Shown here piece by piece: positions 32,710 to 35,449 of a stretch of DNA of 35,449 nt (within the stretch, counting starts at the first letter, position 1; the number at the start of each line of letters is the position of its first letter). Origin of the DNA: an uncultured Flavobacteriales bacterium (GTDB taxonomy: Bacteria > Bacteroidota > Bacteroidia > Flavobacteriales_D > Sanyastnellaceae). A program made the translations under genes and the position numbers. Where the stretch lies: NCBI GenBank assembly GCA_938085425.1, contig CALKGQ010000030.1:1-35449 (forward strand), given 5' to 3'. The notes under the pieces were generated by a model. It had not been told where the DNA came from. It saw only the letters and a program-made list of their open reading frames with translations, and did not search any database.

Positions 32710-33814
32710 ACCCGAATGGACACGACTTGGGGCACAAGCCTTTCCGCACCTCATGGTTCTCCTTGGGGTTGGGATGGCTTGGGCGGTGTTCCGTTCAGGC
32801 GTCGAGTGGGCCGAACCATGGGGATGGCTTGGCGCATTGACCCTTCTGGTGCACCTGGGGCTGATGTTCATCCCAAGCAGGATCTTCCGCCCCCTTCGCT
32901 TGCGGTGGGCCCAGGCCCAGTGGTCCTCCGACGTACCTGCGCCATCGAATCGGTCGGAAATGGTGGCAAACGTCATGCTCGAATGGCCAAGGGCGATGCG
33001 CACCATGGCCTTGGCCGCCCTGACGGTGGCCCTGTTCAGGCCCCAAACAGCATCCACCGTCGAAAACATGACACGGGAAGGCATCGATCTTGTGCTGTCC
33101 ATGGACTTGAGTGCCTCCATGCTCTCCAAGGATTTCAGGCCCAACCGCCTCGAATCTGCCAAAGAGGTGGCCATGGAATTTGTGGACCGTCGCCCCTTCG
33201 ACCGCATAGGGGTCGTGGCCTACGAAGGGGAAGCCTTTACACAGGTGCCCATCACGACCGACCACATTGTCGTCAAGAATGGCATCAAGGCTTTGGACAC
33301 AGGAATGCTCGAAGGTGGGACGGCCATCGGCACGGGGCTCGCAGTGGCCGTGAACCGTTTGAGGGCGTCGGAGGCCAAGAGCAAGGTGATCGTGCTGCTC
33401 ACAGATGGAGAGAACAACGCTGGCCAAATGGAACCCCTAGACGCTGCGCAACTCGCGCGCCTCAATGGCATTCGGGTGTACACCATAGGGGTTGGCACCA
33501 TCGGCAAAGCAAAGAGCCCTGTGGCCATTCGCGCCAATGGAACCTACCAATACGATTGGGTCGATGTCCGCATCGACGAGCCCTCCTTGCAGCGCATTGC
33601 CGAATTGACAGACGGCCGATATTTCCGCGCCACCAACATGAAAAAACTGAAGGAAATCTACGCGGAGATTGACGCCCTTGAAAAGACGGAATTCAATGTG
33701 CTTCGCTACCAGCGCAAAAGCGAAGCAGGCACAGCGTGGATTGCCTTGGCCCTTTTTGCCATGGGCATGGAAATGCTGCTCCGTACGACCCTCTTCAAAT
33801 CGCTGCAGGCATGA
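32702..33814 (+). CDS. batA: BatA-like vWA-domain membrane protein
   Basis: A 370-residue inner-membrane protein. It has hydrophobic N-terminal segments (about residues 14-58 and 100-113), a vWA domain and a C-terminal helix (TAWIALALFAMGMEMLLRTT). The MIDAS is complete: IDLVLSMDLSASMLSKDF (D135-x-S137-x-S139), EGGTAIGTGLAVAV supplies the Thr, and VIVLLTDGENNAGQ the Asp. The ATG at 32702 overlaps the end of the preceding gene and gives the family start. The stop overlaps the next ATG. In Bacteroides, Bat proteins are linked to oxygen tolerance; the molecular role is unresolved. Confidence 0.92.
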   Translation: MSKPEWTRLGAQAFPHLMVLLGVGMAWAVFRSGVEWAEPWGWLGALTLLVHLGLMFIPSRIFRPLRLRWAQAQWSSDVPAPSNRSEMVANVMLEWPRAMRTMALAALTVALFRPQTASTVENMTREGIDLVLSMDLSASMLSKDFRPNRLESAKEVAMEFVDRRPFDRIGVVAYEGEAFTQVPITTDHIVVKNGIKALDTGMLEGGTAIGTGLAVAVNRLRASEAKSKVIVLLTDGENNAGQMEPLDAAQLARLNGIRVYTIGVGTIGKAKSPVAIRANGTYQYDWVDVRIDEPSLQRIAELTDGRYFRATNMKKLKEIYAEIDALEKTEFNVLRYQRKSEAGTAWIALALFAMGMEMLLRTTLFKSLQA

Positions 33815-35449
33815 AGAAGTATGGTTCCATACGACCTGTTCTGGGCTTGCTCCTGTTCTTGGAGTGTCTCTTTTGGGCAGGCCTGGCGGCCGCATGGATT
33901 TCTGCCCGTGCCTTGGCGCCCAGCCTCACCTTTGAACGGATGGATTCCTGGCCTCTTCTCCTTCTCACCACCCTCAGCACCTTGCTGATGGTGTTCCACG
34001 TCCGTTGGAGACATCGCGCCGTCCAGAGACTGGCAGACGCCCCGAGGTTGGATTCCGTGTTCTCGGGTTACACGCTGTTCCAGCCTGCATGGAAGTTTTT
34101 GCTCTGGAGATGGGCCCTGGCGGCACTGGTCATTGGATGGTTGGACCCCAAAATGGGAAGCCAACTCGAAGAGGTAGAGTCCGAAGGCGTCGACTTGATG
34201 GTCGCCGTGGACGTCAGCAACAGCATGCTTGCAGAAGATGTCGGCATGCCCCGTTTGGACCTTGCCAAGCGAACGGTCGAGCGGCTCATGGCCCAAACTG
34301 CTGGCGACAGGATTGGCTTGGTGGTGTTCGCAGGCGAAGCCTATGTGCAATGCCCATTGACCACAGATGCAGAGGCTGTGAAATTGTTCCTTGCATCGGT
34401 GCATCCTGGGATGGTCAGCGTCCAAGGAACAGCTGTAGGCCGGGCCGTCGAGACCTGCTGGGAAGGATTTGATGTGAACAGCGAAGCTGCACGAGCTGTG
34501 GTGGTCATCACCGACGGTGAAAACCACGAAGATGACATTGTGGCCGCCTCTCGGAAGGTGTCGGAGGAAGGTGGATCTGTGCATTTCTTGGGACTGGCCA
34601 CCGTCGAAGGATCCCCCATCCCTGCGTTTGACTCAAGGGGACGGCCCTCCGGGTTCCGAGAGGATGCCACGGGCAACCCCGTGGTCTCCCGGTTGGACGA
34701 ATCCACACTTTTGGCATCCGCACAGGCGGGCAGCGGCACCTACATTCGTGCAGGTCAAGGCTTTGTGGAATTGACCCCGTTTTTGGACTTCAAAGAGAAT
34801 CTCGAAACGGCCGCCGTGGCCTCCGTGACGTTTGTGGATTACGAGCACTGGCTCATGCCTTGGTTGATCCTCGCGGCCATCCTTTTGCTGTTGGAATCCC
34901 TCCTGCCTTCGCGCCCATTCAGAACCAGCAAAACATGGGCGGCTGCATGCGTTCTGCTTTTGTGGTCCCCGTGGATGCAAGGCCAATCCTTGGAAACGAA
35001 AGGGCACTTGGTGGAGGGCACCCAGACCTTTGAAGAGGGCGATACGGAGGCAGCCATCGCAGCCTTTGGCCTTGCGGCCTCTGACATGGATGCCAGCGGC
35101 GTGGCTTTGTACAACCAAGGGTGCGCCCAAATGAAGGCAGAGGAATGGACCTCAGCGACCCAGAGCTTTGAACGTGCCGCCAAACGTCTCGGCCCATTGA
35201 GCCTTGCTGAGAATGCGCACTACAATGCCTCGGTGAGCGCACTGATGGACCAACGTCCCGACCTCGCCGCGCAGCACGCCAAGGATGCCTTGCGCATCCA
35301 ACCTGGCAATGTTGACGCGCGCCACAATTTGGCCCTTGCGAAGCGTATGATGCAGCAACAGGACCAACAGGACCAACAGGACCAACAGGACCAACAGGAC
35401 CAACAGGACCAACAGGACCAACAGGACCAACAGGACCAACAGGACCAAC
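33811..35449 (+). CDS. BatB-BatC fusion: vWA membrane protein with TPR domain (3'-truncated by window edge)
   Basis: One uninterrupted frame of 546 codons to the window end. Residues 1-365 are BatB-like: N-terminal helices (about 10-33, 48-63, 96-110), MIDAS in [14 protein letters not shown] (D134-S138), [10 protein letters not shown] (T208), [11 protein letters not shown] (D235) and a helix at 350-365. A second hydrophobic segment ([19 protein letters not shown], 375-393) resembles the signal peptide of a stand-alone BatC. TPRs follow from about 395 ([20 protein letters not shown], then [40 protein letters not shown]). From 517 on it is a Gln-Gln-Asp repeat. There is no stop or ATG in frame between the BatB C-terminal helix and this second segment, so it is a true fusion. 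The start overlaps the batA stop (ATGA). Confidence 0.9.
35356..35449 (+). repeat. 9-bp tandem repeat (CAACAGGAC)n, at least 10 copies, cut by window end
   Basis: Ten full copies plus 4 bases run to the last base of the window, all identical. They lie in frame in the batB-batC fusion and encode (Gln-Gln-Asp)n. Because the unit is a multiple of three, copy-number changes would keep the frame. The full length cannot be seen. Confidence 0.98.

What the first reader, a model, noticed from the sequence alone, without database searches (positions are those of the whole stretch)
33811..35449. BatB and BatC fused into one protein with an internal relic of the BatC signal peptide
The vWA protein reads without stop into a TPR domain. 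The usual C-terminal BatB helix is followed by a second hydrophobic segment ending in WMQGQS, like a signal peptide with its cleavage site. In many Bacteroidota batB and batC are separate genes. The fusion fixes 1:1 stoichiometry and sets topology: either two membrane passes between vWA and TPR, or cleavage releasing BatC after membrane insertion.
Basis: partly seen in the sequence, partly recalled or inferred. Interest (0 to 1): 0.5.

Follow-up and report, generated by a model that had tools for sequence, protein, structure and literature searches.

The report
Fused BatB-BatC with kept cleavage signal
Two neighbouring bacterial membrane-protein genes have been joined into one, yet the joined protein keeps an intact export-and-cut signal in its middle, so it is probably made as one chain and then cut into the two usual proteins.

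Summary
Window 33811-35449 is one open frame: BatB (vWA domain, four membrane segments) running into BatC (TPR), lost at the contig end. No frameshift: 8 of 8 genomes of the genus whose contig reaches the junction are fused, as are 15 of 15 of a second genus and 1 of a third; 39 other family loci are split. 'Relic' does not hold. The junction is hypervariable, yet 24 of 24 fused proteins keep a basic loop, a hydrophobic core and [AGS]-Gln, the signal peptidase I site of the Bacteroidetes Q-rule (2000 shuffles: mean 13.9, maximum 20; control membrane segments 4 of 22 and 3 of 24). Of 18 fused proteins elsewhere in the class, 17 keep it and one has a lipobox-like LSAC. One origin of all fusions is rejected; within the family it is not. 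Best reading: a recurrent precursor, inserted with vWA and TPR in the periplasm and cut at the internal signal peptide into BatB and BatC, 1:1. Cleavage is inferred, not seen; the window's own site is less canonical. Fused batB-batC is in print for Leptospira biflexa (PMC3557215).

The parts
33811..35449 (+). batB-batC fused gene, 3' end missing (contig end)
   Evidence: single open frame; window is the whole contig C30
33811..33814 (+). ATGA overlap of batA stop and batBC start
   Evidence: sequence, batA ORF 32675-33814
34093..34146 (+). third membrane segment of BatB, in-to-out by the positive-inside rule (a control helix)
   Evidence: loop charges over 24 fused proteins; no topology program was run
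34174..34755 (+). vWA domain, residues 122-315; MIDAS word DVSNS at residues 134-138
   Evidence: match to BatB structures 3ibs/4jdu; Pfam VWA_2; DVSNS
34852..34905 (+). BatB C-terminal membrane helix, out-to-in
   Evidence: hydrophobicity and loop charges
34909..34935 (+). basic loop SRPFRTSKT, acting as the n-region of the internal signal peptide
   Evidence: no D/E and at least 2 K/R in 24 of 24 fused proteins
34936..34968 (+). hydrophobic core of the internal signal peptide (residues 376-386)
34981..34986 (+). predicted signal peptidase I site G391|Q392
   Evidence: [AGS]Q after the core in 24 of 24 fused proteins; Q-rule, abstract of PMC5837995
35017..35349 (+). BatC TPR region, residues 403-513
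35353..35449 (+). GACCAACAG (DQQ) tandem repeat of the Gln-rich BatC tail, where the contig breaks
32675..33814 (+). batA, upstream operon partner
   Evidence: Pfam VWA; NCBIfam BatA_Lepto E 1.7e-52, below its cut-off
29660..30856 (+). moxR-type AAA+ ATPase of the same gene run
   Evidence: AAA_3 and AAA_lid_2
30873..31751 (+). DUF58 protein of the same gene run
   Evidence: PF01882 E 4.4e-67

Best explanation
The gene makes a BatB-BatC precursor. Shown: one translated frame carries both domains; the junction keeps the three parts of a Sec/SPase I signal peptide ending in [AGS]|Q; the genome encodes signal peptidase I and a protein that matches glutamine cyclotransferases; the fused state changed many times in Bacteroidota and the site is still there in 41 of 42 fused proteins read. 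Inferred: BatB's four helices insert with the vWA domain in the periplasm. The basic stretch after its last helix then serves as n-region for the former BatC signal peptide, which starts a second translocation. SPase I cuts before the Gln, releasing periplasmic BatC (its N-terminal Gln probably cyclised) and leaving the signal stub as a fifth helix at the end of BatB. The gain would be fixed 1:1 synthesis and co-delivery of partners that most split family operons already couple through a stop/start overlap.
For: [AGS]Q after the junction core in 24 of 24 fused family proteins, against at most 20 (mean 13.9) in 2000 shuffles of the same residues; after the TM1 and TM3 cores 4 of 22 and 3 of 24. 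A separate 16-row alignment, not anchored on the site, has A and Q as nearly invariant columns. Residue -3 is A, T, L, M, V or I in 24 of 24; the uncharged stretch up to the Gln is median 18 residues, against 17 in 54 split BatC signal peptides. The Gln codon is CAA in 15 and CAG in 9. Junction dN is 5 to 18 times that of the vWA domain in 8 of 8 chosen pairs and the region has indels. Fusions outside the family: 17 of 18 have [AGS]Q, one LSAC (read by eye). Cytoplasmic segments sum to 259 K/R and 63 D/E, the short periplasmic loop to 28 and 26. SPase I and a cyclotransferase-like protein, E 2.1e-73 to 6qro, are encoded.
Against: No protein data: nothing here shows cutting. The window's own site (M at -3, G at -1) is less canonical than its relatives', and in the alignment its row is offset by one residue from the A-Q columns; split BatCs L058 and L063 do read MVG|Q. 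An uncharged stretch of 16-23 residues could stay as a membrane helix, and its 19-residue hydrophobicity (1.27) is lower than that of split BatC signals (1.68) but near TM3 (1.43). For young fusions (L148/L181 beside split L182/L183) retention may be inertia. In the family a single fusion origin is not rejected (p 0.145; two genera alone p 0.184), so 24 of 24 are not independent trials, and the shuffle test does not correct for relatedness. No shuffle control was run for the 18 others.
Confidence: 0.7

Rival explanations
1. Permanent tether: the second hydrophobic segment is an uncleaved fifth helix, so the vWA and TPR domains remain one polypeptide, both in the periplasm.
For: The stretch is long enough for a short helix (16-23 uncharged residues) and the charge pattern fits a fifth helix equally well. 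Its 19-residue hydrophobicity, 1.27, is near that of TM3, 1.43.
Against: It does not need [AGS]-Gln, yet this is in 24 of 24 and, outside the family, 17 of 18, while the residues after the TM1 and TM3 cores of the same proteins have it in 4 of 22 and 3 of 24.
Confidence: 0.2
2. BatC is still made separately from an internal start within the fused frame.
For: Most fused genes have some in-frame ATG/GTG/TTG near the junction; the window has TTG codons 5 and 7 codons before P366 and one at the end of the core.
Against: No start is at a conserved place; L044 has none from 8 codons before the P366 position through the core; the window has none between P366 and the core. In L148 and L181 the stop, the start and BatC's own n-region seen in split L182 and L183 are absent.
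Confidence: 0.06
3. Assembly or sequencing error that joins two separate genes.
For: Many of the genomes are metagenome assemblies; for some single cases (L113 beside split L129; L133) an error cannot be excluded.
Against: 8 of 8, 15 of 15 and 1 of 1 genomes in three genera agree. In 53 of 55 split loci of the family and order batC is in another frame than batB, so loss of a stop alone would not join them; the fused junction shows coding constraint.
Confidence: 0.02

Closest known systems
Fused batB-batC of Leptospira biflexa (PMC3557215, passages seen)
   Same: One gene carries BatB and BatC, with vWA and TPR domains; the paper also notes fusions of bat coding regions in Borrelia burgdorferi, Spirochaeta thermophila and Francisella tularensis Schu S4.
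   Different: Another phylum; its sequence was not obtained here (probe pattern: 0 matches). The passages seen mention no internal signal peptide or cleavage.
Split batB and batC of Bacteroidota (bat operon, B. fragilis type)
   Same: Same domains and order after batA; BatC signal peptide ending in [AGS]Q in 54 of 54 split loci scored.
   Different: Two genes; in 35 of 39 split family loci batC's ATG overlaps batB's stop as ATGA. Split is the commoner state: 64 of 80 named loci.
FbcH of Bradyrhizobium japonicum, cytochrome b/c1 precursor cut at an internal signal peptide (recalled; searches listed no paper that I could use for it)
   Same: A membrane protein followed by an internal signal peptide and a periplasmic domain, made as one chain.
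   Different: Unrelated proteins; there the cleavage was shown by experiment (recalled), here it is inferred.
Bacteroidetes Q-rule substrates of SPase I (PMC5837995, PMC10653852; abstracts and outlines seen)
   Different: The rule is described for ordinary leader peptides; here the site lies in the middle of a protein.

Membership tests
BatB (Bat operon vWA membrane protein) | BatB-type vWA domain with MIDAS motif | tested here: met
   E 1.6e-45 to BatB structure 3ibs; DVSNS
BatB (Bat operon vWA membrane protein) | follows moxR, DUF58 and batA in one run of genes | tested here: met
BatB (Bat operon vWA membrane protein) | membrane helices on both sides of the vWA domain | tested here: met
   hydrophobicity and loop charges; no dedicated topology program was run
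BatC (TPR protein of the Bat operon) | TPR repeats followed by a Gln-rich tail | tested here: met
   the tail is cut off by the contig end in the window; its end is read in L007-L009, L011 and L013, and in L010 around an N run
BatC (TPR protein of the Bat operon) | signal peptide ahead of the TPR region | tested here: met
   present but internal
Signal-peptidase-processed precursor (FbcH-like mechanism) | internal signal peptide with a conserved cleavage motif | tested here: met
   24 of 24
Signal-peptidase-processed precursor (FbcH-like mechanism) | two mature proteins found in the cell | not testable with these tools
   needs a blot or proteome
Q-rule substrate | Gln at +1 after the SPase I site | tested here: met
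   Q392 and corresponding sites; the site itself is predicted
Q-rule substrate | N-terminal pyroglutamate on the mature protein | not testable with these tools
   needs mass spectrometry; a cyclotransferase-like gene is present

The most novel reading that the evidence does not exclude
BatB-BatC is a recurrently evolved bacterial polyprotein: fusion happens again and again, but only forms that keep a working internal signal peptidase site persist, in one lineage apparently exchanged for a lipoprotein (SPase II) site, so processing rather than tethering is what selection preserves.
Probability: 0.5. Interest if true: 0.62.

Novelty: new variant of a known kind. Interest (0 to 1): 0.47.

Why it matters
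What the widespread Bat operon does is still unsettled. A fused gene whose cleavage signal stays intact says that BatB and BatC act as partners made in equal amounts on the periplasmic side of the inner membrane, and that BatC must be free. It also gives a natural, repeated example of a bacterial precursor probably cut by signal peptidase at an internal site, testable in existing proteomes of fused species.

Tried and rejected
Frameshift or artefact: rejected for the window's genus. Relic of a signal peptide: rejected by the kept site. Separate internal start: no start codon at a conserved place. Single origin of all fusions in the phylum: rejected on a hand-picked 50-row set; single origin inside the family: not rejected (p 0.145). 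In one MAFFT alignment the Gln was not in one column because of indels; in another of 16 rows A and Q were nearly invariant columns, with the window's row offset by one; so presence of the motif was tested against shuffles and control segments. Two searches of the own assembly for the missing 3' end of batC found nothing. Fetching L. biflexa by a published probe found 0. Paper searches for FbcH gave nothing usable (passages of PMC6256036 did not describe it). Searches that could show a printed account of BatB-BatC with an internal signal, or of bacterial internal-signal precursors, gave none in their listings apart from the L. biflexa fusion; subscription journals are mostly not held. Structure prediction and fold search were not run, as they would not show cleavage.

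Rows dropped or not called: L014 (contig ends before the junction) from the junction counts; L001-L005, own-genome loci, from the classification. Of the 72 family genomes with a match, three (G085, G092, G103) were not fetched. L020, L040, L043 and L050 were 'B only' in the BLAST step and counted as fused from the single-frame match and the printed junction. Two of 24 rows were too short for the TM1 control; control segments were up to 16 residues after the core, the junction stretches 8-17 residues long. L101, L102, L103 and L108 share contig lengths, and L104 its junction letters, with family genomes already counted, so they were not counted twice. In one search at least one more full-length match in one open frame (G621) was not fetched.

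Full report
What is there. The window is the whole contig C30 of a 2.07 Mb, 56-contig genome. Its end holds a moxR-type gene, a DUF58 gene, a 323-residue protein without a Pfam match, batA, and a gene from ATG 33811 that is open to the contig end. The gene's product has a BatB vWA domain, residues 122-315, whose best matches among solved structures are BatB 3ibs and 4jdu, and a TPR region, residues 403-513. Between them lie BatB's last helix, a basic loop SRPFRTSKT, a second hydrophobic core [11 protein letters not shown], and PWMQGQS. The 3' end is lost in a GACCAACAG repeat; two searches of the assembly found no continuation. In the related record L101 the fused gene ends in IEKDW and is followed by two further ORFs that I read, by position and content, as batD and batE (no family search was made on these two).

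Is the fusion real? Yes. Of 10 other genomes in the genus, two (G003, G009) had no match and one (G010) ends before the junction; the other seven plus the window, 8 of 8, are fused. In the family survey, 114 genomes with 72 matched, a second genus is fused in 15 of 15 matched genomes and a third in 1 of 1. By the same script 39 family loci are split, one of them (L082) with a broken batB; five (L072, L077, L079-L081) gave no BatC call, and three matched genomes were not fetched. In 35 of the 39 split loci batC's ATG overlaps batB's stop as ATGA. In 399 genomes of the order, 297 matched, the rows listed, about 150, show no further full-length match in one open frame; the remaining matches were not listed. 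For 8 chosen close pairs of fused genes dN/dS across the junction was 0.22-0.73 in 7 and undefined by saturation in one, against 0.02-0.06 in the vWA domain (7 of 8), so the junction is translated but loosely constrained.

Not a relic. The junction P366-K397 varies in sequence and length. Still, after the hydrophobic core, 24 of 24 fused proteins have Ala, Gly or Ser followed by Gln. Shuffling the same residues gives 13.9 on average and never more than 20 of 24 in 2000 rounds. The up to 16 residues after the TM1 and TM3 cores of the same proteins have the motif in 4 of 22 and 3 of 24. In a separate alignment of 16 fused proteins A and Q are nearly invariant columns; the window's own row is offset there by one. 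The loop before the core has no acidic and at least two basic residues in 24 of 24. The uncharged stretch up to the Gln has a median of 18 residues, against 17 in 54 split BatC signal peptides. The Gln codon is CAA in 15 and CAG in 9. Gln right after the SPase I site is the Bacteroidetes Q-rule (PMC5837995 and PMC10653852, abstracts and outlines seen). The genome has a signal peptidase I and an M28 protein, of which 229 residues were used as query, whose best PDB match by sequence is named glutamine cyclotransferase, 6qro, E 2.1e-73; several next matches are deposited as leucine aminopeptidase or exopeptidase.

How wide. Of the 80 named loci kept from one scan (583 confirmed before the cap), 15 are fused, 64 split and 1 not callable. 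Five of the 15 repeat family genomes already counted. The ten others are nine Bacteroidales (among them a Parabacteroides, a Prevotella MAG and a Paludibacteraceae MAG) and one Flavobacteriales MAG. Of the best 30 loci out of 395 genomes of the class, 8 are fused and 22 split. Of these 18 fused proteins, some near-identical (L160/L169, L199/L200), 17 have [AS]Q at the junction, read by eye without a shuffle control; L146 instead has LSAC, a lipobox-like word (motif recalled; SPase II not tested). On a 131-row BatB tree of the quick kind the fused state needs at least 12 changes, on a hand-picked 50-row tree 13, and holding the 24 fused rows of that tree together is rejected, p 5e-41. Fusion and fission are not told apart by these counts. 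Inside the family three changes are the minimum, but one clade of all fused rows is not rejected (p 0.145), nor of the two larger genera (p 0.184). L148 (Parabacteroides) and its relative L181 lack the stop, start and BatC n-region that the split relatives L182 and L183 have; BatB's own basic tail stands in for the n-region.

How it most likely works. Shown: one translated chain, kept signal-peptide parts, kept site, recurrence. Inferred: insertion with the vWA domain outside, second translocation started at the internal signal, cutting by SPase I before Gln, release of BatC, the stub left as BatB's fifth helix. Loop charges fit this topology: the three cytoplasmic segments sum to 259 K/R and 63 D/E, the short periplasmic loop to 28 and 26. 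An uncleaved tether would place both domains on the same side too, but gives no reason to keep [AGS]Q.

Against this reading. There is no protein evidence. The window's own site (M at -3, G at -1) is among the least canonical, though split BatCs L058 and L063 read MVG|Q. The fused cores are less hydrophobic over 19 residues (1.27) than split BatC signals (1.68) and BatB's last helix (1.93), and near TM3 (1.43), so hydrophobicity alone does not decide. Part of the retention in young fusions may be inertia. Family rows are related, so 24 of 24 is not 24 independent trials; the shuffle test does not correct for that.

What is known. Fused batB-batC is in print for Leptospira biflexa, with other bat fusions noted in Borrelia, Spirochaeta and Francisella (PMC3557215, passages seen). 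Precursors cut at an internal signal peptide are known from cytochrome b/c1 FbcH (recalled; not confirmed). I found no printed account of the internal signal in BatB-BatC in the listings. So this is a new variant of a known kind.

Noticed in passing
L133:1324-4935: One open frame of 1204 residues joins BatB, BatC and a BatD-like protein, with a second internal signal-like segment; relatives L140 and L177 stop after BatC, so an assembly error is possible.
   Followed up: no
L146:3897-5735: Fused BatB-BatC whose internal signal ends in LSAC, a lipobox-like word, instead of [AGS]Q.
   Followed up: partly
window 35353-35449; also L010, L046, L047, L050: The Gln-rich BatC tail is a variable repeat at which assemblies break (window, L046, L047, L050) or hold an N run (L010).
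   Followed up: partly
window 31738-32709: A 323-residue protein between the DUF58 gene and batA matches no NCBIfam or Pfam model at the thresholds used; by eye it has an N-terminal signal-like segment and a later hydrophobic segment.
   Followed up: no
L019; L109, L112, L114, L184: batB and batC are split but in the same frame with a stop in between, so loss of stops alone could fuse them.
   Followed up: no
L108: The record is titled Chryseobacterium gleum, but its contig length (7336) and junction are those of G022, a genome of the window's family, so the title looks like a misnaming.
   Followed up: no
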